The notes beneath the pieces are model-generated. The model saw nothing but the letters and a program-made list of their open reading frames with translations, searched no databases and was not told the DNA's origin. Shown here in pieces: positions 12,448 through 48,800 of a stretch of 64,000 bases of DNA (positions are counted from its first letter, which is position 1; each line of letters opens with the position of its first letter). Source of the stretch: Candidatus Methanoperedentaceae archaeon (lineage in GTDB: Archaea > Halobacteriota > Methanosarcinia > Methanosarcinales > Methanoperedenaceae). The DNA is taken from the NCBI GenBank assembly GCA_003104905.1, contig PQAS01000042.1:62001-126000 (forward strand). Direction: 5' to 3'. A program made the position numbers and the translations under genes.

Positions 12448-12499
12448 TTCCTGACAATGATGATTCCTACACCTCCGGATTCCCACCCCTGGCCATCAA
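12448..12499 (-). pseudogene. Decayed duplicate of the 5' end of the gene at 10465-11007
   Basis: On the minus strand this stretch reads in frame as DGQGWESGGVGIIIVRKK, against DDQGWGTPVGGVGIIIVRKE in the intact gene at 10937-10994. The DNA is nearly identical apart from a six-base gap. Only about 50 bases remain. The stop codon of the RloB-like gene (12496-12498) falls inside this fragment, so it marks one edge of the inserted defence-like pair. Confidence 0.75.
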
Positions 12500-13104
12500 T
12501 TTTTGGCAGCAATTTTGAGAAACTCTTCAACGATTACTGATACCTGAGTCGAAGGATTGCTTTCAACACATAATAATTCTATCCCATTTTTTTTATGCAA
12601 TTCTATTAATTGGTTTGCATTTTTAATTGCATGTACTCTCTTATCTTTCAATTTTTCATAAACATCTATATTTTTCTCGTATTCTGGCATGAATTCTTTC
12701 AATTTAACCATCACATCTTCACGATATATCTTGTAGAGGATTGGGGTATAATGCAAAAGAAACCATAATTCGAAACTAGGATTAGATAAACATAACAAAA
12801 CATTTTTCCCTGCAATCTTACAAGCGCGAGCTATTTTTTCATTGGTATTTTCATCACAATCAAAAACGCACCAAACCGTATCTCCAGTCTTTAAATGAAG
12901 CTTTCGGTATTCAAGAGCATAAGTTGTAAGATTTACGGGATCTGTGCATTTTGGCTTGGGTATTTCAATTTTTATATTACTGCTTCGTAAAACTGTTCTA
13001 TATTTCTCAAAATATATTCTTTCTGTTACTTTTCCTTCACAGACAATTACAAAAAATTTATTCTCTCTTCTTGTTCCACGCTTTCTTCTTCGACCTGCAT
13101 TCAT
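12496..13104 (-). CDS. RloB-like protein
   Basis: A 202-residue protein of the RloB family, known from restriction-linked loci and AbiL-type abortive infection pairs. A TOPRIM-like arrangement is visible: Glu23 in VCEGKVTE, then Asp82 and Asp84 in WCVFDCDE, followed by the family's hallmark SNPSFELWFLLHY at residues 107-119. These acidic residues suggest a metal-dependent nuclease. The start ATG overlaps the stop codon of the ATPase gene upstream (ATGA), so the two form a toxin-effector and ATPase-sensor style pair. The region is clearly more AT-rich than its neighbours, in line with transfer. Confidence 0.85.
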   Translation of the reverse strand: MNAGRRRKRGTRRENKFFVIVCEGKVTERIYFEKYRTVLRSSNIKIEIPKPKCTDPVNLTTYALEYRKLHLKTGDTVWCVFDCDENTNEKIARACKIAGKNVLLCLSNPSFELWFLLHYTPILYKIYREDVMVKLKEFMPEYEKNIDVYEKLKDKRVHAIKNANQLIELHKKNGIELLCVESNPSTQVSVIVEEFLKIAAKN

Positions 13105-14408
13105 GAAAATATCCTTTCACCACTTATGAATGGTATAGCCCCATATCTTCCTTCAAGATATCCAATTTGAATATTCTTATCTTTACGTGGACTAAATTCT
13201 AGGAGGGAGTAAAGGTCTGTACTTCCAACTTTTGGATTTTTTGAGGTAAACCAGATTTGATCTCGTCTAAATAAATCCAGATTAAGCAAGTTAGTGTTGT
13301 GTGTGGTGAAGATTAGTTGAGCATTATTCTTATTTTGAGTTGGATCATGAAATAAATCAATTAAGAAAACATTCAATTTGTGATGTAATTTTGTATCTAA
13401 CTCGTCAACTACCAAAACACTACCCTTGTCTAATGCATCAATCCAAGGACCAATTAAAGAGAATAATCTTTTTGTCCCTTCAGATTCTTCTTCAAACTCG
13501 AATTCGACCTTAAATTCATCTCCTTCATTGTTAGGGGCTTTATGAATAGTTTTGATATCCATATTCACCAATAGCATTCCTTTATCATCCTGCTCCAATA
13601 TTATTGATTCAGTTTTGAGAGTCTTTTTGACAGTTGGAGAATCATGAAGAAGACCAATAGAAACATCTTCAAGAGGAACTTTTTCTATATTAGCAGATAA
13701 ATCGATTATACCCAAATCAGCTAAGTCAAGAGCTTTTAATATGATTTTTTTTAGATTTTCATCTTTATTATACAATTCAACCGTTTTGTTAATTAATCCG
13801 GGATTATCAGTTGCTATTACTGTTGTTAAAGTGTCTTTAAACCAATTAAAAGCTTCAGATGTTGTTTTATTGTTTAATTGAGTTGAAATTGAAAGATATA
13901 GAGCATTTTCTAATGTTTTTTCCGAAAAAAATTTTTGGTTTTTCTTATCTATTGTGAATCTATAATTATAAGTGTCTTTTCTTTCAAAAATAAGTGATTT
14001 ATGGCCTTCAGGATAATAATATAAATATTCATTAATAATCTTTTCATTCGTAAAAGAAACTCCATAAACATATTTGATATTATTTTGGATAAAAACAATT
14101 TCGAATTTAGTTGGCTTAGAAAGATAGTCCTTATCAAGTTTAAATGGGGAGTAACTGAGTTCAGTACCTTTTTGAAATTTATGAGATTTCATTACTAGGC
14201 CCTTCAAAGAATTAAAAGCTAAAACCACATTGCTTTTTCCAGAAGCGTTTGGTCCAGATATTACTGCACTTCGCAATAATTTATCTTTTTTTAATATATC
14301 TTTTTGAATTAAATTATTATCTAGTGACTTATCAGAGGAAGCTACTAAACTTAATGTTACTTCTTCCTTGATAGAACGAAAATTTTGGATACTAAATTCA
14401 ATCAACAT
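13101..14408 (-). CDS. AAA15/21-type ATPase (RloA/AbiLi-like)
   Basis: A 435-residue ABC-like ATPase of the OLD/RloA type. The N-terminus LIEFSIQNFRSIKEEVTLSL is typical; the Walker A is GPNASGKS at residues 52-59 and the Walker B is VLVVDELDTKLHH around residue 335. A TTHNTNLLN switch follows, and the signature region is SEGTKRLF. Members act as sensors that hold or release a nuclease partner, here probably the RloB-like protein translated from the overlapping next gene. The coding strand is A/T-rich with many AAA and AAT codons, unlike the flanking genes. It probably serves phage or plasmid defence. Confidence 0.88.
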   Translation of the reverse strand: MLIEFSIQNFRSIKEEVTLSLVASSDKSLDNNLIQKDILKKDKLLRSAVISGPNASGKSNVVLAFNSLKGLVMKSHKFQKGTELSYSPFKLDKDYLSKPTKFEIVFIQNNIKYVYGVSFTNEKIINEYLYYYPEGHKSLIFERKDTYNYRFTIDKKNQKFFSEKTLENALYLSISTQLNNKTTSEAFNWFKDTLTTVIATDNPGLINKTVELYNKDENLKKIILKALDLADLGIIDLSANIEKVPLEDVSIGLLHDSPTVKKTLKTESIILEQDDKGMLLVNMDIKTIHKAPNNEGDEFKVEFEFEEESEGTKRLFSLIGPWIDALDKGSVLVVDELDTKLHHKLNVFLIDLFHDPTQNKNNAQLIFTTHNTNLLNLDLFRRDQIWFTSKNPKVGSTDLYSLLEFSPRKDKNIQIGYLEGRYGAIPFISGERIFS

Positions 14409-14554: not shown

Positions 14555-15622
14555 CTAATCCGACCCGGAAATTTGAAATCTGATCATACCTGCATAGAGC
14601 ACAATTGCAGAGGCCGCATACCCCCCGCAGTAAACAAGCACCTCTGCCCCGATAGAATCGGCACTGAGCCTCGTTACCAGGTTAAAAGGAGAATTCGTGA
14701 AAATATAACCTGCAAGGAACATCAATATAAGCACAAGTGAATACAAATACTGTGAAATCATCCTCTTTTTATATTTGACTGCTATCATTGCTCCAAGAAT
14801 AACAACGATGGCTGCAATTATTCCACACAAGAGCAGGATGAATCCGATGTTATAAACAATGACCCCATTTAACCTCAAAAGAAGAAGCCATAGAAATGCC
14901 TGCGCAGGGACAATAATAATAGCCGTGATCATCTTTCCGTTCACTATCTGCGAAAATGATACCGGGGAAACCAGCAGCAAATCCATGGTCTTGCGCTCAT
15001 ATTCCTCGGTCAGCATATCGATTATCAAGCCGCCGGAAATGAAAACCGGTGTAAAAACAAGAAGCGGAATAAGTATCCCATATATGAATTCAAAATAGGT
15101 GGAGGTTTTTCCAGGCATATCATCAACATAGAGTCTTATGGGTTCAAAACCAATTCTCGCTCCTCTTATATCGCGGACGTAGCTTTCATATTCCTCCAGT
15201 GGTTTTTTTAGCTGCAGTGTTACGAAGGTGCCCCTTATATCCGATTTTGGAAGATAGATTACCAGGTTGATGAGTTCATTTCCTCCCGCGTCCTCTTTCG
15301 GGATGACGACTATGGCATCGATTCTATTACTGTCAAAATCAGAACGTGCAGAGACAATGTCTGTATAATAATGCGGATTCACCTGGCTGTCTTTTATGAA
15401 TTGTACCAGTTCTCCCTGCCCAACAATTCCCACTTCTGCCCTGGGACTGTCATACTTGCTGAGAGAGGAGGGATCAAAAAAGGAAGCAAGACCTATTACG
15501 ATCATAGATGAGAAGGAAGCAATTAATAATTGAACGATAATTGCAAGCAAAAGTGTTTTTTCATTCAGGAGTGATCCTATCTCCTTTTTTACTATGACTC
15601 TTGAATTAACCAAAAACAACAC
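14555..15622 (-). CDS. ABC-2 type transporter permease
   Basis: Membrane subunit of an ABC exporter (355 residues). It has one N-terminal membrane helix, a large outside loop (about residues 50-170) and about five C-terminal helices, as in NatB-type ABC-2 permeases. The motif MLTEEYERKTMDLLLVSPVSFSQIVNGK is the typical cytoplasmic coupling segment. It begins with GTG and overlaps the preceding permease gene by 17 bases. With the divergent ATPase gene at 17403 it likely forms one export complex; the cargo is not evident. Confidence 0.88.
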   Translation of the reverse strand: MLFLVNSRVIVKKEIGSLLNEKTLLLAIIVQLLIASFSSMIVIGLASFFDPSSLSKYDSPRAEVGIVGQGELVQFIKDSQVNPHYYTDIVSARSDFDSNRIDAIVVIPKEDAGGNELINLVIYLPKSDIRGTFVTLQLKKPLEEYESYVRDIRGARIGFEPIRLYVDDMPGKTSTYFEFIYGILIPLLVFTPVFISGGLIIDMLTEEYERKTMDLLLVSPVSFSQIVNGKMITAIIIVPAQAFLWLLLLRLNGVIVYNIGFILLLCGIIAAIVVILGAMIAVKYKKRMISQYLYSLVLILMFLAGYIFTNSPFNLVTRLSADSIGAEVLVYCGGYAASAIVLYAGMIRFQISGSD

Positions 15623-17351
15623 TCCTTACCAGGTAAAGATTATAGGCTGCATGTACCATCGATGCTATGACAACACAGGCCAGATACTCCCGATGCCCCA
15701 GGTATCGGATTGCCAGGGAGGACGATGCCGTGGAAGTTACATGCAGGATCAATGGAAACACAAGAAGTCCTATCCCCATTACTGATCCGAATGCTGAGCC
15801 GGCAATACTGGCAACGACCACAAGAAGCAGAAGCTTTTCACCTGCAAAAAAACCAAGACCTGATAATATTGCGAATTTCAGGGCATTAACGGTGGTAACA
15901 TCAGCCATTTTTCGTGAAAAGACCGTATATATCCCTACTGATTTTATAATTTCTTCAATGAACGCTGCCACAATAATAAAAAAGAATATTCCGATGCGGA
16001 TAGGAAAATTAAACATGAGGACGATAAGCATTAACTGGATTGAAAATACAAGAGGCAATAGTGCGATACTCAGGAAGAAAAGCGGGAATGGCACTCGTTT
16101 AATAAATTCCTGGATAGAATCCAGGAGTTTTTCTTTGATGGATTTTTGCGTGAACAGGTCTTCTTCCCTGTAAATGAAAATCCCGAATATGAAAATCAGG
16201 ATGGATAACAGGTACAATGGGGTCGTTGAGAACATATAATCGCTTACCGAAACGGCCTCATTCTCAAGCAGCCTGACAACAAGGGTTATCGGTGAAATGA
16301 TGCTTATGGAATGGATATTTGCAAACATCGCAGGAAAGAAGATATAACCGGACAGGAAAACTGAAAGGAAGATCAGAACAAAACTGAGCTCCTTGAAACT
16401 TCGTGCAATAATCGCCCCCAGGAAACTTGTTGAGAGGAACATCAGGGAAACAGGCAGCATGATCAGGATTATTAAGGGGCTTCCTCCAAGTTTTAATGTC
16501 ATTATTGCCACAAGCGCCATTGAACCCAGAAGATACGGCAAAAGCTTACCAAGGACGATCTCGTATGAATTAAGCGGCGATACGAGCAAAAGTTCACCTT
16601 TTCTCTTTATTCTTTCATCCATTATGCTCGATGAAAAGAACTGCGCGATAAAATAAATGGGAAAGATAAATATGAAACTGAGAACAACGGATTTAAAAGG
16701 AACGGGCGGGTCAAAATGAGATGGAGTTGCAAGTGATTGGCCGCTTATTAGTGAGACTTTTTTTATTTCAGTGATCTCTTTAATTGAAGGAGTATTCCCG
16801 GCCGTTTTTTCCGGGATTTTTTCAATTACCTGTTGCGCTGCGGATGATTTTTTTTCATTTGATTTTTCGATCTGCGGAAGTGTATTGATCGATGGGGTCT
16901 GGAAAGCCTGTTCCCGGGCAATATTCTTAATAGTGATCCACACCGGGAAAGTATTATTCAGGTCATTATACGATAATAACCTGGCTTCATCGTATCTTTT
17001 TATTGTTTTGTCTATAGCATCCAGAGCGGATATGGACTTATCAGTGTCACGGTAGTAGATTTTTGCCCCGTTTATGAGTATGTCAAATCCTTCATTTTCA
17101 AAAAGAGATCCCGCATCCTCTGCCACATGAACTTCGAATTTCGCCTCACTTTGCAAAACCCTGGCAATGGATGCGTCTGTTACTGCGACCCTGTAAATAT
17201 TATCATTAATATGAAGACCTGATTGGGCGGCAAAAAAAGAAGTCATACCTATCAAGATCAATATAATGAAAGAAAGGAAACGGGTCTTAAGGCTGAAACT
17301 TGATTTTGTCTTCCTTAATTCCCATCTGGCTATAGTAAATATTCGCCTCAT
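15606..17351 (-). CDS. ABC-2 permease fused to a PrsW-like (M82) membrane protease domain
   Basis: A 581-residue fusion. Residues 1 to about 400 form an ABC-2 permease, with the coupling segment DERIKRKGELLLVSPLNSYE. The last 170 residues match the PrsW/CPBP-type intramembrane protease pattern: EEIIK at 466-470, SGLGFFAGEK with Glu near 505, HVTSTASSSLAIRYL with His near 537, and MVHAAYNLYLV with His near 567. These are the acidic and histidine positions used by glutamate-type membrane peptidases. It overlaps the second permease gene and is divergent from the ATPase gene. The protease may process an exported peptide or a regulator; this is inference from the fusion. Confidence 0.85.
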   Translation of the reverse strand: MRRIFTIARWELRKTKSSFSLKTRFLSFIILILIGMTSFFAAQSGLHINDNIYRVAVTDASIARVLQSEAKFEVHVAEDAGSLFENEGFDILINGAKIYYRDTDKSISALDAIDKTIKRYDEARLLSYNDLNNTFPVWITIKNIAREQAFQTPSINTLPQIEKSNEKKSSAAQQVIEKIPEKTAGNTPSIKEITEIKKVSLISGQSLATPSHFDPPVPFKSVVLSFIFIFPIYFIAQFFSSSIMDERIKRKGELLLVSPLNSYEIVLGKLLPYLLGSMALVAIMTLKLGGSPLIILIMLPVSLMFLSTSFLGAIIARSFKELSFVLIFLSVFLSGYIFFPAMFANIHSISIISPITLVVRLLENEAVSVSDYMFSTTPLYLLSILIFIFGIFIYREEDLFTQKSIKEKLLDSIQEFIKRVPFPLFFLSIALLPLVFSIQLMLIVLMFNFPIRIGIFFFIIVAAFIEEIIKSVGIYTVFSRKMADVTTVNALKFAILSGLGFFAGEKLLLLVVVASIAGSAFGSVMGIGLLVFPLILHVTSTASSSLAIRYLGHREYLACVVIASMVHAAYNLYLVRSVVFG

Positions 17352-17402: not shown

Positions 17403-18284
17403 ATGAATGAAATTGAAGTAACAGGACTCAGGAAGGAATATGGCAGTTTCACTGCTGTTGAGTCCCTGGATTTTAATATCCGAAAAGGCGAGATTTTCGG
17501 TATCGTGGGACCAAATGGCGCAGGAAAGACAACCACCCTTAAAATGTTGAGCGGATTAATTATTCCCACCGGAGGTCGAATAAGAATACAGGGATCGGAT
17601 ATTGGGGAAAATTCACGGGCAATAAAACAGAAACTTGGTTTCCTGCCCGAGGAAAGTCCGTTATATGAAGGTATGACTGCAAATGATTACCTCATGTTTT
17701 TCGCAGAAATATACGGGTTGACAAAGGAAATCGCATCCATCCGGATAAAAGAACTCCTCTGTGCCCTTAAACTTGATGCGAGAGACAAAAAAATTGGCGA
17801 GATGTCAAAGGGGATGCAGCGAAAGGTGGCAATTGCAAGGGCATTAATCAATAATCCCGAATACCTCATCCTGGATGAGATGACCTCAGGTCTTGATCCC
17901 ACAACATCCAGATATCTTTCGGATTTTGTATTGGACCTCAAGAAACAGGGAAAAACCATAATATTTAGTGCGCATAACCTGTACCAGGTTGAAAGCATAT
18001 GCGACCGTGTTCTCATAATGAACCGGGGAAAAGAGGTTTCTATCGGCAGCATGCCCGAAATAAAGAAAATGTGCGGAGCTATTGAATATTCCATCGAGTT
18101 TCGTACAAAGGATGACTTTGATTTTGATGCAATGAAAAATAACGGGAATTTCCTGGCAAAAACAAATAATATTGATGAATTTAACAGAATTACAGGGTGG
18201 GTTGCAAAGCACAACGGAGAAATCATAAATTTAAAGACCGTGGAGACTTCACTTGAAGAAATTTTCCTTAAACTGATGAGTTAA
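17403..18284 (+). CDS. ABC transporter ATP-binding protein
   Basis: The ATPase subunit of an ABC-2 exporter (293 residues). The Walker A is GPNGAGKTT near residues 38-46, the signature is MSKGMQRK and the Walker B is YLILDEMTSGLDP, followed by the H-loop IFSAHN. The C-terminal 80 residues carry the extra domain common in CcmA/NatA-type export ATPases, ending SLEEIFLKLMS. It is divergent from the two permease genes and most likely energises them. Confidence 0.93.
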   Translation: MNEIEVTGLRKEYGSFTAVESLDFNIRKGEIFGIVGPNGAGKTTTLKMLSGLIIPTGGRIRIQGSDIGENSRAIKQKLGFLPEESPLYEGMTANDYLMFFAEIYGLTKEIASIRIKELLCALKLDARDKKIGEMSKGMQRKVAIARALINNPEYLILDEMTSGLDPTTSRYLSDFVLDLKKQGKTIIFSAHNLYQVESICDRVLIMNRGKEVSIGSMPEIKKMCGAIEYSIEFRTKDDFDFDAMKNNGNFLAKTNNIDEFNRITGWVAKHNGEIINLKTVETSLEEIFLKLMS

Positions 18285-18290
18285 AAAAAA

Positions 18291-18974
18291 TCACTTTCGA
18301 GGGATTTTTTCCAGCATTTCGCGTTTTTTCTTAAGGGCAGAGATACTGTAGTGGTAATATCCCCACACAAATAAGGCAGCGGCCAACAGGGATCCAAATA
18401 AATACATTAACATTACCGGAGTATCATTCTGGTGATATCTCACCCTGATCTTTTTATTTTGCGGATTATTCCAGACCAGGATTTCTCTTCCTGATGAATC
18501 CTTTGTAATATTATCGGGTACTGGCTGGACATATCCCAGGAAAATTGTCCCTGCTGTGAAATTTTCCGGTAAAACTACACGTATTGTGCTATTGTCTGTC
18601 GGAAAATATGTAAAATCCTGTCCTCCCGGAATGGTAAAAGCCACAAATCCTGAAAAATTCGAACTGAAATTTAAATGTGCGTAATTTTTTGCCATAATTG
18701 AAATTATTGAAACATTCATGCTGACATTTTTCCCCGAATAGTCTACTGCAACAGGATACCTGAAAGTCTGGATACTGTCTTCTATCCTGTAATCAACCGA
18801 TGCCCTGTCCACAACATTGTATATGGACTGTACTGAAGACAGATTCAGGTAGAAAATTGTAGTATTGGCAAGACCGGGTAGTTCATAACGGGATGGATCA
18901 CCTGTTTTGACAGTAGGGGAAATGCAGCCTTGCAAAAGAACTAAAAGCAAGATAAAGACAAGAACAATTTTCAT
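18291..18974 (-). CDS. Lipoprotein with C-terminal membrane anchor (DUF5803-like)
   Basis: A 227-residue surface protein. The N-terminal signal ends in the lipobox LLQGC, giving a lipidated Cys near residue 17. A beta-rich extracellular domain with many N-x-S/T sites follows, then one membrane helix (about 189-208) and a basic tail ending KKKREMLEKIPRK. The layout matches DUF5803 proteins of archaea as I recall them. It follows the pilin-like gene by 49 bases and may be part of the pilus-like operon, or serve as an assembly factor. Confidence 0.7.
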   Translation of the reverse strand: MKIVLVFILLLVLLQGCISPTVKTGDPSRYELPGLANTTIFYLNLSSVQSIYNVVDRASVDYRIEDSIQTFRYPVAVDYSGKNVSMNVSIISIMAKNYAHLNFSSNFSGFVAFTIPGGQDFTYFPTDNSTIRVVLPENFTAGTIFLGYVQPVPDNITKDSSGREILVWNNPQNKKIRVRYHQNDTPVMLMYLFGSLLAAALFVWGYYHYSISALKKKREMLEKIPRK

Positions 18975-19023: not shown

Positions 19024-20373
19024 TTAATTAATGACGAAATTAGCATACAAAATTTGTTGATCCATCCTGTCAATCGTCAAAACATTGGGAGAAGTGATGT
19101 TTGAGAAAAACCGGTAGTAATTCGTCAGGTCAATCTCTCTTGTATTTGTAATATTTTTATTATTAAACTCCATATATGTATTGTATGTAATATTATATGT
19201 TGTATTGTCTGCGATGTGAGGATATCTTTGCTTCACGGATATTATATTTATTGCATTATTATATGATCTCGAAAATTTTATCTCGACCGTCCATATATTA
19301 GTTATATCCGTTACCGAGAATCTCAACCTTATATCATGTTCTTCCTCATCATCACTCTCCTCATGCCCGGTATAGATCGAACGAGCCATTGTAATATCTT
19401 GTATCAGGAATTGGGTAGATTTATTTGCTGCCGGAATATCAAGCCGTCCCTGCCCTTTGTCGAACATATCCTGGCCGTCAGGTCCTGTTGCCCCTCTTGA
19501 ATTCATCAATGAGTTGTCAAAAGTGACCATTCCCGTATACATCTGTTTCTGTAAAGGTTGGTTCTCATTATCCGGTAAATTAAGTTTTTTCACATTATAT
19601 CCCGGGATGTAACTTAATTTTATACAAGAACCGGAAGAATTTCCATAAGAGCACTTTGATCCGTTCTCTATCGTGAAATTTGAGCCTGATGGTCTTGATT
19701 CTTTGGATATATTTTTCCAGATATTCGGGTATCGTGTTTCTATAGTTGCATTCATCGATGAAAATTTTGCCTGGGAAAAACCTTCATTTGATATCGGCTT
19801 TATATCCAGTGACTCGATTTCCATAGATGAACCGGAGGTCGCAAGTCCATTAAGAATAGGGATAAATATGTTATCCGATGAGGTTAAAGATTGGTTATCA
19901 TCTACTAAAAAAACAAATCCATTACTGAACTCTTTCATAATCAAACCATTTTCGTATATAAACCTGGGAGAATCAGATATTCCATCCTGTTCATAGATAA
20001 GTCCCATTGATGTGTAATTTTTCCACTTGATGCCTTTGGTAGTTTCATAACTGATATTTATCCTTAATGGATATGTATAGAGAATCCCGCTTGCCCCCTG
20101 TCCCGGGTTGGAAAGCATAAAGCGCTGCGGATACTTCACTCCCATATGAAAAGTAGTCGTTTTAGGAATATTCTTTCCGGAAACATCTTCCAGGTTTGAG
20201 CGCATGGTTACAAAATCATCATATACCACATCTAATTGCTGTTTTTCCAATTCTTCATTCCATTGGGGGACCTGGCGGGCCTGCATGATGCCGAGGTAAA
20301 GGACCAGGATCAAAAGTATCATCATTGCGCCAACAACTTCCGAAACCGCTTTTTCATCTTTTAAGAACATCAT
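19024..20373 (-). CDS. Archaeal type IV pilin-like protein
   Basis: A 449-residue secreted protein with an archaeal pilin N-terminus: a short charged leader (FLKDEK) before AVSEVVGAMMILLILVLYLG, the usual cleavage region for the PibD/EppA peptidase followed by the hydrophobic filament helix. The remainder is a large beta-rich domain with numerous N-glycosylation sites. It is far longer than a major pilin (100-150 residues), so it could be a minor or tip pilin or a pseudopilin. It sits eight bases behind the tadC/flaJ-like gene. Confidence 0.8.
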   Translation of the reverse strand: MMFLKDEKAVSEVVGAMMILLILVLYLGIMQARQVPQWNEELEKQQLDVVYDDFVTMRSNLEDVSGKNIPKTTTFHMGVKYPQRFMLSNPGQGASGILYTYPLRINISYETTKGIKWKNYTSMGLIYEQDGISDSPRFIYENGLIMKEFSNGFVFLVDDNQSLTSSDNIFIPILNGLATSGSSMEIESLDIKPISNEGFSQAKFSSMNATIETRYPNIWKNISKESRPSGSNFTIENGSKCSYGNSSGSCIKLSYIPGYNVKKLNLPDNENQPLQKQMYTGMVTFDNSLMNSRGATGPDGQDMFDKGQGRLDIPAANKSTQFLIQDITMARSIYTGHEESDDEEEHDIRLRFSVTDITNIWTVEIKFSRSYNNAINIISVKQRYPHIADNTTYNITYNTYMEFNNKNITNTREIDLTNYYRFFSNITSPNVLTIDRMDQQILYANFVIN

Positions 20374-20381
20374 ATTTTCCT

Positions 20382-22232
20382 CTACACGAACAGGACAAAG
20401 AAAAGATAGGCTGTAGTCATCATAATCACTGAATGTTTAAGGCCATCGTATACGCTTTCCCCCATCATCTGCCCCACGATGATGCCTGAAAAGAAACCCT
20501 GTATCACAGATGCATGCATGAATAAAAGAGTATATTCAACCTTCTGGGCATTTATCATGAGCATTCCCGAAGCTTCCGGGGAACTCACATTCGGTATCTT
20601 TGGAAGGAACATCACAGCAAATACGTATAATACCAGCAGGAATACTGCAAACGACATATATACGACAATAAGGTAAGAGAACAGGACGGTAAACTTCTGC
20701 TTCTTGAGCTTATCAGCAAGCGTTGCTTCATTTGCCGCAACCCTGAGTGTTTCTTTAATATTTCCCGTGGACTCACTGGCCTTTGTGATCAGGGTGATGA
20801 TCCTTGAAATAGAAATTGTCCTGACCCTTCGTTCGAATTTTGTCAGCGCGCCAAGGACGCTATTGCTCCAGACAATATCTTTATACATGAGTTTCACTTC
20901 CGTGCTTAAAACACCAAGGTTTATTTTGGTAATTGATTTTATGGCATCAGAAAGCGGCATACCGACATCGTTTATGGCAGCCATCCGCCTTAAGAAAACA
21001 GGTACCGAGTCTTCAATTGCTTTAATATGCCGTGTCTGTTTTTCATAAAATAACAGGAATGGTACAAGCAGGATCAGTACACTTATTATTATGGAGTCAT
21101 CCAGTACATCAACTGTTATCTTTTGTGTGTAAATGGATAAGACAAAATAAACAAACGCCAGAGGAATTGTGACATAGAACACTTTTGCCGGATCCGCAAA
21201 AAATATTTTCAAAGGATTTTTTCGAGTCTCTATCACGCTTGTCCACCTCAAAGACCTGAGAAGTTTGCGTATCAGTCTCTCGTCATCATTTGAAAAAGTT
21301 GTTTTTACATCGTCGTAATGCCTTATTTTTCTGGAAACTGAATATATTTTGACAAGTTTGGAATCGCTGCCAAGGGAAACTACGCTTAGAAGAAGGCTAA
21401 ATGCAACAGCGCTTAATGGAATTACCGCATATATGAGAACCTTGAGTATTAGCAGATTTCCCGGACCCATAAGGCCCATGACTATGACAATCGTTATCAA
21501 GAAAAGGGGTCCGGCGACGAAAACAGTTATATATGTCTCGGCAAGCATACCCAGCATCTCAAGATACATGTTCTGGTCCGCCTCTGCCGCACTCTGGTAA
21601 TGGGACACCATATTCCCGAAGAACGTATCAAGGTCACCGCTTGTTTCTGCAACATTGATGAGATTATCTAAAAAATCCCTGAACTTCTCGGATTGGGTAT
21701 TGGTGGCGGCATTTTTTAGTGATGTTATTATATCATTGCCGTGTATTTCGGTATCCATGACAATGTATTCGATCTCTTCCGCAAATTCGCCATAAATGTT
21801 GCTATGCCGGCTTAAAGACTTGAATATTGAAATAAGACTCAAACCCCCTTTGCTCATTGCATGCATATATGCAACACCGTGGGGAAGCGTAAGGTCTATC
21901 TTGCTTTTTCTTACTTTTGCTACCAGTCCGGGATATGCAATAATAAGATAATAGCAGATTATTGCCATGAACGCTGAAATGAATATAATTGTCAATGCAG
22001 TGATAATAAGATTTGAATATAAGATACCCCCAAAATATGCAATTAACAGGCCGGAAAAAATGCCAATAAATCCGGTTATTATGGAATAAAGATATGCACT
22101 GCTCACATATATATCCCAGGGCATTACGATATGCCCCTGTTTGATCGATGACCTGACGGAAGAATACTTCTCTTTATTTCTTCGTACAAAATTCCCGCAA
22201 ATGGCAAAAGCCAGTTTATTTAATCTGTTCAT
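20382..22232 (-). CDS. Type II/IV secretion membrane platform protein (TadC/FlaJ/GspF family)
   Basis: A 616-residue integral membrane protein carrying two GspF-type cytoplasmic helical domains, each with helices of the type 'AYMHAMSKGGLSLISIFKSL' and 'RRMAAINDVGMPLSDAI', and about eight membrane helices. It anchors the pilus base and interacts with the assembly ATPase. Its start codon overlaps the ATPase stop codon (ATGA at 22229-22232). The duplicated layout matches archaeal pilus and archaellum platform proteins. Confidence 0.9.
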   Translation of the reverse strand: MNRLNKLAFAICGNFVRRNKEKYSSVRSSIKQGHIVMPWDIYVSSAYLYSIITGFIGIFSGLLIAYFGGILYSNLIITALTIIFISAFMAIICYYLIIAYPGLVAKVRKSKIDLTLPHGVAYMHAMSKGGLSLISIFKSLSRHSNIYGEFAEEIEYIVMDTEIHGNDIITSLKNAATNTQSEKFRDFLDNLINVAETSGDLDTFFGNMVSHYQSAAEADQNMYLEMLGMLAETYITVFVAGPLFLITIVIVMGLMGPGNLLILKVLIYAVIPLSAVAFSLLLSVVSLGSDSKLVKIYSVSRKIRHYDDVKTTFSNDDERLIRKLLRSLRWTSVIETRKNPLKIFFADPAKVFYVTIPLAFVYFVLSIYTQKITVDVLDDSIIISVLILLVPFLLFYEKQTRHIKAIEDSVPVFLRRMAAINDVGMPLSDAIKSITKINLGVLSTEVKLMYKDIVWSNSVLGALTKFERRVRTISISRIITLITKASESTGNIKETLRVAANEATLADKLKKQKFTVLFSYLIVVYMSFAVFLLVLYVFAVMFLPKIPNVSSPEASGMLMINAQKVEYTLLFMHASVIQGFFSGIIVGQMMGESVYDGLKHSVIMMTTAYLFFVLFV

Positions 22233-23836
22233 ATATTCCTGATAAATTTCATGGTTTTTCCGGCATCTGCATAATAGCTGCGGATAAGAGCAACGATTTC
22301 ATACTCATCCATTTCTTTTTCAGCCATATATTCAAGGACTTTCTTCCTGTTCTCAAGTTCCGTGTTCAACTGTTTTTCATCCCAGTTACGACTGACCATG
22401 ATATCCTCAAGAACGAAGGATTTCCCGCTATTCCTGAAAATATCATTTTTCGGATCCCAGGTATAGAGTTCATTGAACCTGAGGTCCTGGGTCTTAGGAT
22501 CAATTCCTATGAATTCCACTATGCTGTCAAGGCGCCGTACTCTTTTATCACCGCGAATGATCATCTTCTGGATACAAAGGATATCCAGCGCCTGGATCAT
22601 TACACGGGGAATATTTATCGGGTCGCCTTCAAGCCGGCTGATAACCGTATCTACAGAATCGGCATGCATGGTCGAATACGTGGTATGGCCTGTATTTATT
22701 GCCTGGAACAGTGTCATGGCTTCTTTTCCCCTGATCTCCCCCACAATAATATATTCAGGACGCTGCCGAAGCGCCTGGCGCAAGAGTTCATACATATCAA
22801 TATCGCAGACAGTGTCTGCCTTTGTAAATGATTCACGCGTGACGCTTCCGATCCAGTTGGTATGGTGCAGCATGAGTTCATGCGTATCTTCGATACTGAC
22901 AATCTTGGCAACAGGAGGAATAAACAGGGAAACAGAATTCAACGATGATGTTTTCCCGGCTGCTGTGGCACCTGCAAATATCATGCTCTTGCTATTTTCA
23001 ACAGCAAGCCACAGATAAGCAAGTATTTCAGACGAATAAGTGCCATTAAGGATAAGATCAGCAGGCGTAAAGGCGTGTTCACGGAATTTCCTTATAGTAA
23101 ATGAGCTTCCCCTGAATGTAACTTCTTTTCCAAGCGAAGCATTAAGTCGAGAGCCATCAGGGAGCGTGCTGTTGACCAGGGGTTCTCCGATTGATATCTG
23201 CTTGCCGCATCTTTGTGTGAGCTTAACTACGAACGAATCGAGCCTGTTTGCTTCGAATGAAATATTGGTCTTAAGATTATGGTATTTCCTGTGATACACA
23301 AATATCGGGATATCCGAGCCGTCACATGATATATCTTCTATGTTCGGATCTTTCATGAGGGTATCCAGCCTCTCATAACCGATATAATCCCTTTTGATAT
23401 AGTAGAGGATCTTATAGATAGCTTTTGGATCTATTTCTATTGAATAACTGTCAATCAGCTCAATCGTTTTATTTTCAATGATCTCCTCTTTTGTCTGGCT
23501 TGAGGTTTCATAAATAGTAAGAGTATCAAGAATATTCTCATAGACCGTCTCAAGCACCATTCTTTCAAATGCAGTAAGCTGCGGCTCTACTACATGGTAT
23601 TGGTATTCATTTTTCTCTTCATTAAAAAGAATTGAAATAAATGCATAAGGTTCATTGACCCAGTACATGTCTTTTTGGACAAAACCTTCTGCTCCCCCAA
23701 AATCAACCATATTTCCGAATTTTTCCCTTGAATACGGCTCAAGCTTTAGTTTTTCCCTTGTGAGAATATGGAGATAACTCTTCAAATCATTAAATTCTTC
23801 TTCAATTTTTTCTTTGAGACCTTTTTTGGATTCCAT
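22229..23836 (-). CDS. Type II/IV secretion system ATPase (GspE/VirB11/FlaI family)
   Basis: A 535-residue assembly motor for the pilus-like apparatus. Walker A is GATAAGKTS in the C-terminal half (about residue 287), followed by the Asp box SIEDTHELMLHH, the Walker B-like YIIVGEIRGKEAMTLFQA and the His box TGHTTYSTMHADS. The N-terminal 200 residues form the membrane-platform-binding part. It is the first gene of the leftward operon and is divergent from the KaiC-like pair at 23962. No archaellin, FlaG/F or chemotaxis gene is nearby, so a pilus or secretion role is more likely than motility. Confidence 0.93.
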   Translation of the reverse strand: MESKKGLKEKIEEEFNDLKSYLHILTREKLKLEPYSREKFGNMVDFGGAEGFVQKDMYWVNEPYAFISILFNEEKNEYQYHVVEPQLTAFERMVLETVYENILDTLTIYETSSQTKEEIIENKTIELIDSYSIEIDPKAIYKILYYIKRDYIGYERLDTLMKDPNIEDISCDGSDIPIFVYHRKYHNLKTNISFEANRLDSFVVKLTQRCGKQISIGEPLVNSTLPDGSRLNASLGKEVTFRGSSFTIRKFREHAFTPADLILNGTYSSEILAYLWLAVENSKSMIFAGATAAGKTSSLNSVSLFIPPVAKIVSIEDTHELMLHHTNWIGSVTRESFTKADTVCDIDMYELLRQALRQRPEYIIVGEIRGKEAMTLFQAINTGHTTYSTMHADSVDTVISRLEGDPINIPRVMIQALDILCIQKMIIRGDKRVRRLDSIVEFIGIDPKTQDLRFNELYTWDPKNDIFRNSGKSFVLEDIMVSRNWDEKQLNTELENRKKVLEYMAEKEMDEYEIVALIRSYYADAGKTMKFIRNI

Positions 23837-39829: not shown

Positions 39830-42800
39830 ATGAATCCCGCAGCACCCACTCCACATACCGGACGCCCTGGCCTGGATTTTTCTATTTTTACTGCCTGCGC
39901 ACATTCTATAGTGATGTTTATAATGTTGAGCGGCGTGGCAGGAGCGGCAACATATAATGCAGCCAGCGGGATCGGAAATATTAATTCTAACAATAGCAGT
40001 TATTGGAGCACTGTACTTAGCAATAACGACAGTATTGTTGCCACCAACATCAATATCATAAACGGTTCATTGAATCTGATTAACGCAACCATCAGGATGT
40101 ATAATGGTTATTATATTTATGTCAAAAGCAATGCAACCATGAATATAACTAATGGCTCAACCATCACGCATTATTACGGCTATTACTATTTCATCTACCA
40201 GGAGGGAAGCTATGGCTATCTGAGCAATAGCACTATCGAGTATAGTACTAAATTGCAGATTGATACCAAAAACAACCTGGCAATAAACAACGTGACTATC
40301 CGTAACAATGCCTATTATGGCATTCATCTTACTCCTTCTTCGGGAAATGTTAACATCACTAACAGCAGCATCACAAATAGCGCGACCGGGACCGACACAT
40401 ACAGCATCTACATCCAATCATCCGGGAATAATACCCTGCGCAATAATAACATAAATGGTACTGTACGCAATCTATATGTGGAAGGGAATTTTGGCAACGA
40501 CATAGATACCAGCAATCTGGTAAACGGGGGCAGGGTTTACTATAGTTACAACAGCAGTGATGTTTCTATAGCCGGGGATAATATCGGGCATATCACACTA
40601 TATAATTCTTCCAATGTATCCATATATAATAACGCACTTGTCGCAAACGGCGATGGGATTCGTTTGATCAATTCAATTAATAATGTCACTATCGAAAAAA
40701 ACACCCTGTACAATAGCAATTATTACGGCATCGATCTCACATCAAGCCGGGCCAATATCACCAATAACACCATAGTAACCAGCGATTTGACTGCGATCTC
40801 GCTGTCAGGTTATGATAACAGCAGCATAACAAATAACACGGTATCCGGAGGGAGTACAGCTTCAGGGATCAGGCTTTCCGGTTCCAATGGCAACAAATTG
40901 ATCAATAATACGGTTACAGGAACAGGTTCCGGCAATGATGGAATTGAGCTTTCAACTTCTAATAATAACAAATTAACAGGTAACATCTTAACATACAGTG
41001 GCGGTAATAATGGAATCAAGCTTAGCTCTTCCGGTTATAACAATTTGACAAACAATACAATAAAAAGCAAATCCATGGAAGGAGTGAATTTGATCGGCAG
41101 CAGCAGCTACAACACGATTATTTATAATGACATCATATCCAATTCCGGCGCTGGCATTGCAATATCTTCTTCTTCCAACACTATTTTAGACAACACTATC
41201 TTATCCAATTCCGGTGATGGCGTAACTGTTTTCTCCAGCACTAATAATTCAGTCAGTAACAATAACATCTCATTAAATTCACAAAATGGAATTAAGGCAG
41301 GTTCTTCAGGAAACCGTTTCTCCAATAACATATTGGCCGAAAATGTTGATAACGGCATCTATATACAGATTGATGATAACACATTTTCCAATAACACCAT
41401 AACCAGGGGTGCAGGTTATGGATTATATATCGATTTTGGACAATATGATAATTATATTTATCAAAATAATACGGTAAACGGTGAAAAAATATATTATTAT
41501 TTTAATAGTAATAATATTCAAACAGTTGCAGTCGAACCCCTGACGGTATCAAAAGTAAGCAATGTCGGCAAGATCAGTTTGATAAAAAGTTCAAATATGA
41601 ATATAAAAAATAATATTCTTTCAAATAATAAATATATCGATGGAGGCGTGCCTTCAGGAATTTTCCTCTACAATTCCACAGGCAATACCATTTCAAACAA
41701 TACCATCACAAATAACTATCGCGGGATATACCTATACAATTCTTCAAGTAACAGGATCAATAATTCGAACAGCATAAACACAAGCGAAGAATACGGAATA
41801 TATTTTAATATTTCAAATCATAACAATATTACAAATAGCATTATTGGATTAAATGCTATCACCGGAATATATTTCAATTTTTCAAATTACAATAATATAA
41901 CAGGCAACGACATCAAAGGAAGTCCTGAAGGCATATTGCTTGATACATCGTTGAACAACAGTCTATTTATCAATAGTATTTCCAATTATACTTTTTCAGC
42001 AATTCGTTTAATAGAATATTCCCTGAACAATACAATGATCGGTAATACCCGCTCAAACAGAAACAGCGCGCAATTCGATATCTATATCAATGATTCCATT
42101 AACAATATCGTCGCAGCCAACCAGAGTACAGCAGCTAATTACACATTCTATTTGACTGGCGATACCAGAGTGGCAACACTTGATACCGTATTCAATAAGA
42201 CAAAAGCAGGTTATGAGGATACTTCGGACCTCACATTGATGTGGCGGATAGACGTACTTTCATGGGACAAAAAACACATAGAACCAATATGGGGAAATCT
42301 AACTGTCAGATACGGCGATTATAGCGATGTCGGAGGAATACTGCTCTGGGACGGCGAGGTCGTAAATGCCAATGGAAGATTGAGTCATAATTCGCTGGAT
42401 TACTGGGGTCCTCCCGATTCCGGCGATAACTGGCTGGTGGTCATCGAATACAGGCAAAATGCAACCGGCAAGATCAATTATCAATCCACTCCTATGAATG
42501 CCACTGTAATCAACAGGTGGGATAGACTTCAAAACATTAATAAATCATATCGAAATATCACACAAACCATCGAGGGCCCCGGGATCACAATTATTGTAGA
42601 CGCGGGTTATACCCCGAATGGAAAATGTTACTACTGCCACAGGAATAAACTCACTTACAGAACTATGGTGCATTGGACTGATTATTCTGAAAGCCTGACA
42701 GATATGTCAAATCCATATACTCCCGGGCGGTGTATCGACTGCCATGATAAGAACGATTCTGCGAATGTACCCCATGGCACTGGCAGCGGAAAGGATATGC

Positions 42801-45800
42801 TGGTCAAGCAAAGTCCCCAGTTGTGTTACAATGGCAACGGCAACCAGACATGCCACAATTCAAGCGCAGTGAGGGTGACACTCGATCAGAAAGCACAGTT
42901 CAACCAGACAACCCATCACGAACTTGGGGAAGGAAAAATGTCATGTTTTTCCTGTCATGATAATCATGGCACAGAGAATCGCTTTGATCTTCACAGACCG
43001 TATTCAAATTCTAATTATTATACCTACAATTCAAATGATTATAGCCTCTGTTTTGTATGTCATCTTGAAGAGAAGCTCAAGGCAAATATATATTCGACCG
43101 GATACCTTGCCGGCTTCAGGAATCAAACAAACTTCAGGGATGAGTATTTTGGATACCCGTATGGATTCAATGGAAGCTATGAAAATTTACATAGCGGCCC
43201 CCATATGGGGTATTCATGTTACTATTGCCACAGTCCGCACGGGTCCGATAGTCCGGCAATGACAAAAGGCCTGAGCTGGACTTATATTACAAATATTACG
43301 CCGCCCGGCACTCTATATCCTTACGGCGACTGGGCTAATCAAATGGGATTGGACCAGGCTAACTGGTCAAATTTCACATTGAACCAGGCTGCCGGTCTGG
43401 GTCCAGGAACAAAATGCGGGTACCATTCCGGTAGTTTCAGACTTCCATCAACATTTGTATATCGGGAATTTGTAGACTATGAATCCGCAGGCGGTCCGAA
43501 TTGCGTGGGATGTCATGACAGCAGTAATCCTGATGCCATCCGAAAAATCCTGAACGTATCTGCACTCAAACTCGCCATGCATACCAACCTGAGCTGGAAT
43601 TTCCGCAATGGCGGAGAACTTCAGGGAACAGGCAAAAACTGGACACAGTGGGGTGTGGAACGCGGCTATAATGCCTCGAATATTTCCACAGATAATGCGA
43701 TTTGCTGGTCATGTCACAGTTCTGACGGCCTGCCCCCATATCCCGGATATCATCCGGATAGAACACTGGCTCCTTATCAATGTCCTAAATGTCACGGGCC
43801 TATTAGCGGGCAGCCACGGCATACAGAGGGACTTGTTGTAGCGATCGACAACCATGGTCCCACTACTAAAGGTGCAGGCTCGGTGTACATCCAGACCAAC
43901 GCAGGAACAAATGGTTCATGCGAAAACTGTCATGCTCCCAGTAAACTGCCGGATTCGTTGATAGGTGCACTTACAGTCTGGAAAAATGGCGCTGTTGTAT
44001 CCTTCACAGGCAGGACAACCGCAGGCGATGTTTCACACTATGGATTGAGCAGATCGCAGGGGGAAAGCCTGGGTATTTCAAACCCGCTGATCAATACCTC
44101 CAATTGTTTATTCTGCCACACAGACTCGGCAAAAGGCGCTATCTGGGGCAATGCCGTGAATATAAGCGGGAATATGTATGGGGCAGACACTGCCAATGTT
44201 TCACAGTGTTACACTTACTGTCATGTGCTTCCGGATTATGTTGGTATTCTCAATGAAAAAAACATTGCGAATTTTCACAATAAATCCGTATACTCAGGCG
44301 GCGGTCCGAATTGTGTTACCTGTCATGATGTGAACGGCATATACCACGTCCAATCTCTGGTCAATGCAACTTCGATCGCACAGGGTTTACATGGGAATAT
44401 GGGTAACAACACCATAGAACTGATCCCTGATATTGATCCGAGATCGAAATCATGCTGGGGCTGCCATCAGACTGACGGTACTGAGCCGGAAAATATGGGA
44501 GATCGCAACGGAATTACGGATCCGGGTAAAAGACCCTGGAAATGCGAGGATTGCCACACCAGAAGCAGCGAATGGGTCGCAGCTACCGGTGACGGGGAAA
44601 CATGGCTGGCAGCCAGTTACCCTCCAAATAAACTGCCGCCACAGGTGTATGCACACTACCAAAACTCTTCAACTGTGAAAACCAATGTAAATGGCAGATG
44701 TGTTGACTGCCATAACAACAGCATTGACCCATATAGTAATGATACAACAGGAAAGGTATTGGGAAATACGATATTTTCGAATGTGTCTCATTATGGTTTG
44801 AACAAATCAAGGGGATCGGCACTGGGTCTTATGAGTCCGCTTTTTGATACCATTTACTGCGGCATTTGCCACAATTCATCCGCAAATGCAACCAGATGGG
44901 GAAATGCCACTCAAAATGATCACGGCAATTTTGCCAACTATTCTGCAGAGGATAGATGCTATGCCTGCCATTCAACTGATAATCAAACACCTCCGGACTT
45001 CCATGCAGTAACTTTAATGCCCGCACAAGGGGGAGTCGATTGTTTGAGGTGCCATAACAATCCGGGATTCTCAAAAAACAGGCGTATCAACGGCAGTATA
45101 TTTTCAGAAGCAATCCACAGGGGTCTAAACAATGCATCAACAATGGAGTACGGTCTTAACCGAACCTGCTGGACATGTCACTTTGAAAATGGCCGCAATG
45201 CCAGCAATCATTCCATGCTAAAGGTTCCGCCATATCTGTGTCCTGATTGCCATAACAAGATAGGAGGCTCATTCATCAATGTGAGTAATGCTCCCAACAT
45301 CTATAATCACTTCAGGAATGGGACCACCATCCTGGCATATTTGACACGAATAGCAGACACGGACTCATGCATGGGCTGCCATAACAAATCAGAGATGTTT
45401 ACTTTCTATCTGCCGGATGAAAATGAGACAAATCCATATTATACGAACTACTCAATCACATCACATTACGGGAGCAATCGAACCGATCTCGTCGATAAAT
45501 ACAATGAAAGCAACTCAACCGAATACTGCTCATACTGCCATCGTAATAATTCGACTATCTTCGTTGAATACGAGAATAATAAAAATATCCGGCATTTGAT
45601 TACGTCTAACTGCAGCAGCCCTGAGTGCCATGGACCCGGGCGGCTGCATAATGAATCATTGGTAAGACCACATACCGGCGGCAACTGCACCGATTGTCAT
45701 CTGGAAGGCGGAATAAACGCAAGCGGCGGCATACCTTTTATAAATAAAACCGGATTTATGGCAGGATTTCACAGCAACATAACAGGGGATTTACGCGAAG

Positions 45801-48800
45801 ATAATTATTCCAGAACGAGCCGCGTATGCTGGGGCTGCCATAACAATTATTCAGAGCAGCTCATTAATGCGACGCATACTGAACCTGTTTCAAACCTTCC
45901 AAAATGTGAAGGGTGTCATGACAGCCCAATGCCTTATAACAGTGAATATCTGAAGACACCGCCGATGCAGGTCAAAGAACATAAGCCGGATGGCGAGGAT
46001 ATACGGACAAATGCAAGTCTTACCAGTTGTGAAATTTGCCATAACATATCTCTTGCCATACTTCCTCCCTCTGCTAATGTAAAGTATCGGGAACCGAAAA
46101 ATTACATATCCCATTATGGCAGGCAAAGAACGGATATGCTTACGGGGAAGAATTTAACTGACTGTGATTACTGCCACAAGAACCAGAGCGGCGAATATAT
46201 CGCCATGTTCCAGAATATTGAAAAAGCAAATGTAACGCATAATGGGAATACGGAATGTGATGTCTGCCATGGGATAGGAAGAATCCATGATCGTAACCTG
46301 TCACAGCCAAAAATGACGGGAGGCAATAATTCACTCTGCTTAATCTGTCATGATCTTCCGGAGAAATCAGGTGGAAAAGTTGTTCAACATTCAGAGTTCA
46401 GTATCAGTGTCCATGCTAATATTGATTGTACCGACTGCCATACACCCAGGCAAAAATTCAAAGGCATAATAGTAAATGGTGAATCAATCTCAAGGATATT
46501 CAATGTCCCTTCAAACATAAGATGGATGAATGCTACGCCGGAAGATAGCAGTATTATTGACCTGATGCTAATATCTCCAGATGGAAAGAACTATACCGGC
46601 AAAAATATCAGCATTATCTCGCCTCTTCCGGGCAACTGGACAAGTATCGTTAGCGGAGGGGACTCATCATATTTCATAACATTGAATTTTACCCTGAATC
46701 ATCCCGGCAGCACACCGAAAATATGTGCCGACTGCCACATAGATGGTTTTGGGGATGCTGTTAAGGTTTACAGGCATATTTCCAACCAGAGCATTGTTCC
46801 AACCGACACTTCCTGTGTAGTATGTCACTCTAAAGACGCACCATACGCACGGACGGAAGCCATGAAGGCTTCCCACTATGCGCCTTTGAGTCCACCTCTT
46901 GATTCAGGAGACTGTATCCGCTGTCATTATAGAGTTGTGTCAGGTTTTGGCAATCCGCCTGATCCAAGAAACCACACACGATATGCAGATATAAATGTGA
47001 CACTGACAACAGGTGAGGCATACAAACTTGTTGATAATTATTCGATTGCATTAATAGAAACAACACAGGATGCAGGAATATTTACCATTGAAAAGGATGG
47101 ACAGCTCCTTTCGCGTGAAATTGTGGCAAAAGGAAATGACTTTATATATGAAGTCACAGGCATCGAACCTGAAAAAACCCGGATCATTAACCTTACCGTA
47201 AACAAATTATTCTCATCCCGGAAGGGATATGCAGCGCAGCTATCCGGGACTGCTCTTGCATCTCGTATCCACAGGGAAACAGAGAACGATTCATGCTATG
47301 CATGCCATGATAAAGAATATCGAACGAACATGCCGGAAGGCATGGATTACTATGTGATAAAGAAAGAAATTGAAAATGTCACACTTGCACGGATGCCCGT
47401 AAATTTCTCGGAAAACAAGACGATAATGCTTGGTATAGGCCAGAGGTGGGACGCCGGAGAAGGCTTTTATCTTGATGTCCAGGATGTGAGCACACAGAGA
47501 GGAAACGCAAAGCTCCGCTTATACAGGAACGGTACCCTCATAGAAGATGCACTTGTCAATGAGGGAAGCAATTTTACTCATGAAGAGCAGGTTCTTGACA
47601 GGAAGATAACAGTCTTCACTATAAAGCTTGACAGCATATTCATCGGCCAAAAAGCCGTTGTGGTCTTAAGTCATGCAAGACTCATTGCGGGTGAGCTGTT
47701 CGAATTAAATTCCACGATACAAGTGACAGGCACTCCTGCAAAATACCTGCGGCTTGACAGTATGTTATCTGTGGGGAAAAAGCCGGAAAATTTCCATGTA
47801 AATACCATTACGCCGGGCGAGTACAATCCGGATTGCATAAGTTGTCATACAGGTGAAGGAATAGCGCCATACAAGCTCGATCTTGAGTCCTTTAAGACGG
47901 GGGTTCATGCCGGTTTGAACAAGAACGTCACCCATACCGCTTTTCTAAGTGACAATGTGAGTAAAGCCTGCTGGGTATGCCACGGGAATGGAAGCGAACC
48001 TGATGAGCATCTTGCGGACAACATGGGTAACTGGACGCCAAAGATCTGCGTTGAATGTCATGTGAACCCGGTATTTGGGGTAAAGCAGGTTTATTCTCAT
48101 TATCCCGGAGCGGCTGTATCAACAAGAGCCACATGTATTGACTGCCATTCAAATACTTTATCAAACACATCAAACAGTTTGTCAAACACATCATACACTT
48201 TATCAAATAATGTTCCGATTAAAACACCTGCTGCGGGAGTATCACATTATTCGAACAGGAAAGGACTGCCTGTTACTTCAAGTTGCGATGTATGTCATAA
48301 TAATTCTACCAGCATTTGGGGAAGCCCTCCACAGGTAAGAGAACACAATCCTAATAATAATTGTCTTCCTTGCCATGGAAATGTCTCTATGTTCCATGAT
48401 TTGGGGATAACCGTAGTGAGGAACTGCCAGGATTGCCATCAAAATAGGGAAAAGGCCCGGGATTTCAACCTTTCGATCATAAACACTCATTATCCGGGAG
48501 CTCCGGACGGAAAAGCAAATACCCTGGAGAAAAATAACTATACCTGCCGGGTTTGCCATAATGCCACCAATAATTCAATGCACTCTTACCTTGAGGTGAG
48601 AAAATACGATAATGAGACTTTTGGCTACTGCTTCCAGTGCCACAGCGGTGAGGGGAAATTCCCTTATAAGCCGCAGGTACAGATTATGGCGCTCAAGCAT
48701 GGTTCAGGAGAAAAAGTCATATCCGGATGCGAAACCTGCCACTCTTCACAGGGAATAAGCAAATTCCATACCCCGACTCTCATTAGCAAGTCATATTTTT

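What the first reader, a model, noticed from the sequence alone, without database searches (positions are those of the whole stretch)
15606..17351. ABC-2 permease fused to a PrsW-like intramembrane protease domain
The C-terminal 170 residues carry all the expected motif positions of a glutamate-type membrane peptidase (EEIIK, GEK, two His segments), fused to an export permease. It would couple processing to export, analogous to but distinct from C39-peptidase ABC transporters for peptides. I do not know of a described system with this fusion.
Basis: partly seen in the sequence, partly recalled or inferred. Interest (0 to 1): 0.65.

Follow-up and report, generated by a model that had tools for sequence, protein, structure and literature searches.

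The report
Archaeal ABC exporter with built-in protease
A gene common in one large group of archaea joins half of a membrane export pump to a membrane-embedded protein-cutting enzyme in a single protein, probably so that cutting and removal of membrane peptides happen at the same spot.

Summary
ORF 15606-17351(-), 581 aa, is an ABC-2 permease (residues 1-~400) followed by a PrsW-type domain. Cut out alone, the C-terminal part passes Pfam's PrsW cut-off (27.0 vs 23.5 bits); its model (pLDDT 90.7) matches best the PrsW relative APH-1 (Z 11.1). E466, E467, K470, E505, K506, H537 and H567 are unchanged in every homologue aligned over that region.

The fusion is not unique. Usually single-copy, it occurs in 214 of 392 sampled genomes of the phylum (methanogens, ANME archaea, haloarchaea). 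Where printed, its permease half never occurs without a C-terminal extension, save one contig-edge fragment. An ABC ATPase and a second permease flank it; no small peptide gene is conserved.

Most likely it is a housekeeping exporter that cuts peptides or protein remnants inside the membrane and expels the products: a one-chain version of the bacterial pair Eep/RasP + EcsAB. The function is inferred. A fusion of the same logic with another protease family (NCBIfam ABC_perm_CPBP) is already named; this protein fails that model. I found no description of the PrsW fusion in the open-access papers searched. Verdict: real, conserved, new variant of a known kind.

The parts
15606..17351 (-). fusion gene: ABC-2 permease followed by PrsW-type intramembrane protease domain, 581 aa (P0001)
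16152..17351 (-). residues 1-400: ABC-2 permease half (TM1 ~21-44, extracytoplasmic domain ~50-212, TM2-6 ~219-393)
   Evidence: PF12698 53.7 bits; AF2 model; fold match to mycobacterial ABC-2 efflux pump 8k1m Z 12.9 and Wzm 7k2t Z 11.3
15609..16151 (-). residues 401-581: PrsW-type glutamate intramembrane protease domain
   Evidence: PF13367 27.0 bits alone; AF2 pLDDT 90.7, pTM 0.85; APH-1 Z 11.1
15942..15956 (-). motif 1 EEIIK (E466, E467, K470)
   Evidence: invariant in 80 of 80 rows that reach the region (81 aligned, L104 cut by contig end)
15834..15842 (-). motif 2 GEK (E505, K506 invariant; G504 is A in 3 rows)
15741..15743 (-). H537
   Evidence: 80 of 80 rows that reach it
15651..15653 (-). 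H567 (with N571 four residues on)
   Evidence: H567 80 of 80 rows that reach it, N571 79 of 80
14555..15622 (-). second ABC-2 permease (P0002); starts inside the end of the fusion gene, 17-nt overlap
   Evidence: PF12698 69.8 bits; downstream in 77 of 80 homologous loci
17403..18284 (+). ABC ATPase (P0003), Walker A GPNGAGKT, signature MSKGMQ, Walker B LILDE; divergent, 51-bp gap
   Evidence: PF00005 111.4 bits; motifs; found upstream in 72 of 80 homologous loci

Best explanation
A conserved archaeal membrane complex of one ABC ATPase (inferred to act as a dimer) and two ABC-2 permeases, one of which carries an intramembrane glutamate protease of the PrsW type on the same chain. Shown by sequence and models: the parts, their order, the invariant active site, the phylum-wide spread and the linkage of the three genes. 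Inferred: the protease domain cuts membrane-embedded peptides or protein segments (leader remnants, tail anchors, damaged membrane proteins) and the ABC-2 pair uses ATP to move the hydrophobic products out of the membrane, so that cutting and clearance are coupled in one machine. It would work like the separate bacterial pair RasP/Eep + EcsAB, but with a different protease family and with the protease fused to the pump.
For: Domain calls and folds. Active-site residues invariant across Methanoperedenaceae, other Methanosarcinales, haloarchaea and a Hydrothermarchaeota record (80 of 80 rows reaching the region) and kept in 15 of 15 further divergent rows that reach it (16 examined; motif 2 glycine and N571 vary there). 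Fusion in 214 of 392 phylum genomes, mostly one match each. Permease half found in 157 of 295 genomes, every printed match in a frame of 520 aa or more except one 304-aa contig-edge fragment. Second permease in 77 of 80 and ATPase in 72 of 80 loci. Fused protease domains lie on one side of a 100/100 branch from 17 standalone PrsW. No conserved small peptide gene, which fits a general rather than a dedicated substrate. Published parallels, passages read: EcsAB loss blocks RasP proteolysis and a membrane 'cleaning function' was proposed (PMC2996298); Eep and EcsAB are needed to process and export lipoprotein-leader peptides in S. aureus (PMC7157817).
Against: No direct evidence of proteolysis, transport or substrate. 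The family is absent from nearly half of the sampled genomes (178 of 392), so the job is dispensable or done otherwise there. It does not track archaeosortase A, which is found in 385 of 392 genomes, so a dedicated role in clearing sorting-signal remnants is not supported. EcsB/PptB is not recognised as a relative (no such Pfam hit), so the parallel is functional only. Foldseek itself gave no match with E <= 0.001; the fold match rests on the second aligner.
Confidence: 0.45

Rival explanations
1. Sensor/regulator: the ABC-2 complex senses an envelope stress or ligand and switches the PrsW domain, which performs a regulated site-1-like cut of a membrane-bound regulator, as PrsW does on RsiW in Bacillus subtilis.
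For: PrsW's one known role, as told in a review, is site-1 cleavage of an anti-sigma factor (PMC9263693 passages). The permease carries a large extracytoplasmic domain that could sense.
Against: No regulator gene is conserved beside the locus. B. subtilis PrsW acts without a fused transporter (recalled), and standalone PrsW proteins exist in the same phylum.
Confidence: 0.22
2. Dedicated maturation and export of a peptide (bacteriocin, pheromone), the archaeal counterpart of C39-peptidase exporters.
For: The architecture couples a protease to an ABC exporter.
Against: No small ORF conserved across clades near 80 homologous loci; mostly single copy and broadly distributed, not the patchy pattern of a bacteriocin cluster.
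Confidence: 0.1
3. The C-terminal domain is a catalytically dead scaffold, like APH-1 in gamma-secretase, that only stabilises the permease.
For: The closest solved folds are APH-1 and TMEM147 (that they are non-catalytic is recalled). Motif 2 differs from standalone PrsW: GEK instead of EN.
Against: Both glutamates, the motif-1 lysine and both histidines are retained in every row that reaches them, whereas APH-1 has QExxR in place of EExxR (PMC6588880 passages).
Confidence: 0.1
4. The substrate is a lipid-modified protein: like Rce1, the domain trims a prenyl- or ether-lipid-linked end and the pump relocates the product or lipid.
For: Same superfamily as Rce1; one of 64 domains hits the Rce1-like Pfam model; ABC-2 permeases with similar folds move lipid-linked glycans (Wzm, teichoic acid).
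Against: Nothing in the neighbourhood points to lipid modification.
Confidence: 0.1

Closest known systems
NCBIfam NF041647, ABC transporter permease subunit/CPBP intramembrane protease
   Same: ABC-2 type permease at the N end, superfamily glutamate protease at the C end, about 600 residues (636-position model; in the window's genome its first part is matched by ABC-2 permeases such as P0002 and its last part, 434-633, by separate proteins).
   Different: The protease is of the CPBP family, not PrsW. P0001 gives no hit and 0 of 26 homologues match any NCBIfam model.
RasP/Eep with EcsAB/PptAB (Bacillota)
   Same: An intramembrane protease whose work depends on an ABC transporter; leader peptides are cut and exported.
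   Different: The protease is a metalloprotease on a separate chain; the permease family differs; no fusion.
PrsW of Bacillus subtilis and standalone archaeal PrsW proteins
   Same: Pfam PF13367, motifs EE..K, E, H, H..N.
   Different: No transporter half; motif 2 is EN in nearly all those read, instead of EK; separate branch of the tree, 100/100.
APH-1 (gamma-secretase) and Rce1
   Same: Closest solved folds: APH-1 5a63_C Z 11.1, rmsd 4.3, 155 residues; Rce1 4cad Z 5.5.
   Different: APH-1 lacks the intact motif 1; neither is fused to a transporter.
C39-peptidase ABC exporters (PCAT)
   Same: Protease and exporter on one chain.
   Different: Cysteine protease at the N end and another ABC fold (recalled); no C39 hit here.

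Membership tests
PrsW protease (PF13367) | scores above the curated cut-off | tested here: met
   27.0 bits vs 23.5 for the C-terminal part alone; not reported in the whole-protein scan; 25 of 64 excised homologous domains at E <= 0.01
PrsW protease (PF13367) | EE..K, second glutamate, two membrane histidines, H..N | tested here: met
   motif 2 reads EK where most standalone ones read EN
PrsW protease (PF13367) | fold of the APH-1/Rce1/PrsW superfamily | tested here: met
   AF2 pLDDT 90.7; top five rows APH-1 and TMEM147, Z 10.3-11.1, next row 7.4; Foldseek E all above 1
PrsW protease (PF13367) | proteolytic activity in the membrane | not testable with these tools
   needs an assay
ABC-2 exporter | ABC-2 permease domain | tested here: met
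   PF12698 53.7 bits; 26 of 26 homologues; fold match Z 12.9
ABC-2 exporter | partner ATPase and second permease | tested here: met
ABC-2 exporter | transport of a substrate | not testable with these tools
   needs an assay
NF041647 ABC_perm_CPBP | matches the equivalog model (cut-off 435 bits) | tested here: not met
   no hit for P0001, 0 of 26 homologues, not among the genome's six matches
C39-peptidase ABC exporter | peptidase C39 domain | tested here: not met
   only ABC2_membrane_3 in the Pfam scan
EcsB/PptB permease | EcsB Pfam family (name recalled) | tested here: not met
   no such hit for P0001 or P0002 at E <= 1

The most novel reading that the evidence does not exclude
The complex is an unrecognised part of archaeal membrane-protein biogenesis: the machine that cuts and expels leader peptides left in the membrane when surface proteins and lipoproteins mature, a step whose enzymes are largely unknown in archaea. 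Both the protease and the extractor sit on one chain inherited by much of a phylum.
Probability: 0.1. Interest if true: 0.85.

Novelty: new variant of a known kind. Interest (0 to 1): 0.6.

Why it matters
Bacterial genetics long ago linked an ABC transporter to intramembrane proteolysis (EcsAB and RasP) without saying how. Here the two functions are one protein, with an unchanged active site over a whole archaeal phylum, so the link is physical and can be tested with point mutants. It would also give a function to an uncharacterised archaeal protease family and a candidate for the unknown step that clears membrane leader remnants in archaea. Annotation hides it: one RefSeq entry names it only 'ABC transporter permease subunit'.

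Tried and rejected
Dedicated partner of archaeosortase A: unsupported; ArtA is in 385 of 392 genomes, the fusion in 214 of 392.

Small peptide substrate gene: 1538 small ORFs in 80 loci clustered; only clusters within non-Methanoperedens Methanosarcinales (at most 11 loci), none across clades.

DUF5803 lipoprotein as partner: tail-to-tail with the ATPase here and found adjacent only in some Methanoperedenaceae, so not core.

Internal duplication (protease domain derived from the permease): hhalign of the two halves gives probability 0.2%, while the permease half against permease 2 gives 94%, E 1.4e-7. ECOD authors note that the APH-1 fold and some ABC exporter domains share topology, so a very old link is not excluded.

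Solved relatives by sequence: none. Foldseek: no E <= 0.001; in the whole-model second look the protease part is barely represented (SpdC, Z 6.0, and unrelated transporters).

Haloferax volcanii: a review lists a PrsW-like protein HVO_0408; I could not tell whether it is the fused or a standalone one.

Literature: searches (open-access PMC only) listed no paper on an archaeal ABC-2/PrsW fusion; I judged most by listing alone. The 2011 paper on the protease superfamily (Pei et al.) is not held, so it is unread.

Not done: phyla outside the window's own were covered only by the one pattern scan (80 of 196 relatives kept).

Full report
What is there. ORF 15606-17351 on the minus strand encodes 581 residues. 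Residues 1-400 are an ABC-2 permease: PF12698, 53.7 bits against a cut-off of 31.6. The whole-protein Pfam scan shows no PrsW hit, for this protein or its 25 aligned homologues. With the C-terminal part cut out, PF13367 gives 27.0 bits, cut-off 23.5, and 25 of 64 homologous domains match at E <= 0.01, best 2.6e-9. In the window's own genome this is the only PF13367 match.

Fold. The full-length model has mean pLDDT 72.8. Its permease half aligns to a mycobacterial ABC-2 efflux pump (8k1m, Z 12.9, 187 residues, rmsd 4.4) and to Wzm (7k2t, Z 11.3). The C-terminal domain modelled alone from 64 sequences has pLDDT 90.7, pTM 0.85. Its five best rows are APH-1 and TMEM147 (Z 10.3-11.1, about 150 residues, rmsd 4.1-4.7; that the chains 7tm3_6 and 9c7u_C are TMEM147 is recalled), then a drop to 7.4; Rce1 is at 5.5. 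For a helical bundle the tool warns that Z under about 13 may only mean a common arrangement, and Foldseek alone found nothing significant; the match is persuasive because it agrees with the sequence family. A paper on ECOD, read in passages, classes Rce1-type proteases and APH-1 as homologous and cites PrsW as a remote homologue (PMC6588880).

Active site. In 27 aligned sequences E466, E467, K470, G504, E505, K506, H537 and H567 are invariant (three fragments and two own copies left out). In 81 aligned rows (80 loci and the window), the 80 that reach the region keep both glutamates, K470, E505, K506, H537 and H567; G504 is A in 3; N571 is kept in 79. In 16 more genomes, many divergent, the 15 rows that reach the region keep the EE..K, EK, H, H pattern; N571 is D in two. 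In 64 domains 15 of 181 columns are invariant and include all seven predicted residues.

Distribution. The nearest named relative is a Candidatus Methanoperedens genome, 91% identical, so the window is most likely from that lineage. 30 of 60 genomes searched among relatives, the own one included, have a match. In 392 phylum genomes at least 80% complete, 214 match the fusion profile at E <= 1e-10, most with one match; every printed place runs to profile position 577 or beyond of 585. In the follow-up of 16 of these genomes one match stops at position 276 at a contig end, and two stop near 479 in the tool's table but run to 579-580 when rescored on the open frame. Searching with the permease half alone: 157 of 295 genomes, and every printed match lies in an open frame of at least 520 aa except one of 304 aa at a contig edge. 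So the permease is not seen without a C-terminal extension. A scan of 84,980 species' genomes found 196 relatives; the 80 kept are all archaeal, including Methanolobus, ANME-2c, Natrinema, Haladaptatus and a Hydrothermarchaeota record. Some copies hold stops: one low-completeness relative and two genomes.

Gene set. Downstream lies a second ABC-2 permease overlapping by 17 nt; upstream, divergently and 51 bp away, an ABC ATPase with intact Walker and signature motifs. Over 80 homologous loci the second permease is downstream in 77 (2 have no room, 1 lacks it) and the ATPase upstream in 72 (5 no room, 3 not found). The ATPase is divergent in Methanosarcinales and co-directional in haloarchaea. 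No other family is shared broadly across clades. Twenty of 30 non-Methanoperedens Methanosarcinales loci carry next to it a secreted ~610-aa protein, of which the one example scanned has BatD/DUF11-like domains.

Origin. A tree of 34 fused and 17 standalone PrsW domains from the same phylum puts the fused ones on one side of a 100/100 branch (unrooted), compatible with a single fusion. Standalone ones mostly have EN where the fused ones have EK in motif 2.

How it most likely works. Shown: parts, order, invariant active site, linkage. Inferred: proteolysis in the membrane coupled to ATP-driven removal of products. The closest published behaviour is EcsAB, on which RasP activity depends and for which a membrane 'cleaning function' was proposed (PMC2996298 passages, PMC7478892 passages), and which with Eep is needed to process and export lipoprotein-leader peptides in S. 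aureus (PMC7157817 passages). Spread and lack of a peptide gene favour a general role over a dedicated peptide.

Known or new. NCBIfam names an ABC-2 permease/CPBP protease fusion (NF041647). In the window's genome the model's two parts are matched by separate proteins; neither P0001 nor any of the 26 members of A1 matches it. The idea of such a fusion is therefore not new; the PrsW version, its spread in archaea and its gene set are not described in what I could search. A review of H. volcanii membrane proteases lists a PrsW-like protein with unknown function and does not mention ABC transporters (PMC9263693 passages). A 2012 survey discusses PrsW fusions, mostly with toxin domains; the 12 passages on PrsW that I saw mention no ABC permease (PMC3482391).

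Verdict. Observation confirmed; interpretation partly supported; new variant of a known kind; interest 0.6.

Noticed in passing
window 12496-13104 (-) and 13101-14408 (-): A defence-like pair next to the transporter: AAA_21 ATPase (AbiLi-like, PADLOC 319 bits) and RloB (AbiLii-like, 97.6 bits).
   Followed up: partly
window 39830-49870 (+): A 3346-aa protein with 50 CxxCH haem motifs behind a long repeat region and a C-terminal hydrophobic segment: a giant multihaem cytochrome by motif count.
   Followed up: partly
window 18291-18974 (-): DUF5803 lipoprotein-like protein with lipobox-like start, tail-to-tail with the ATPase, 6 bp apart; found beside the locus only in some Methanoperedenaceae.
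   Followed up: partly
window 19024-23836 (-): ORFs that look like a type IV pilus/archaellum-type assembly set (secretion ATPase, membrane platform, pilin-like protein) nearby; judged from sequence only.
   Followed up: no
L051:10936-13189 and equivalents: In 20 of 30 non-Methanoperedens Methanosarcinales loci a ~610-aa protein (BatD/DUF11-like in the example scanned) follows permease 2, in 14 a ~138-aa membrane-like protein too; a possible lineage-specific accessory.
   Followed up: partly
fused vs standalone PrsW domains, P0001 residues 504-506: Motif 2 is E-K in all fused domains that reach it but E-N in most standalone ones, so the fused enzymes may differ in mechanism or substrate.
   Followed up: partly
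L093: A Halorussus record in which the fusion stands without recognisable ATPase or second permease beside it.
   Followed up: no
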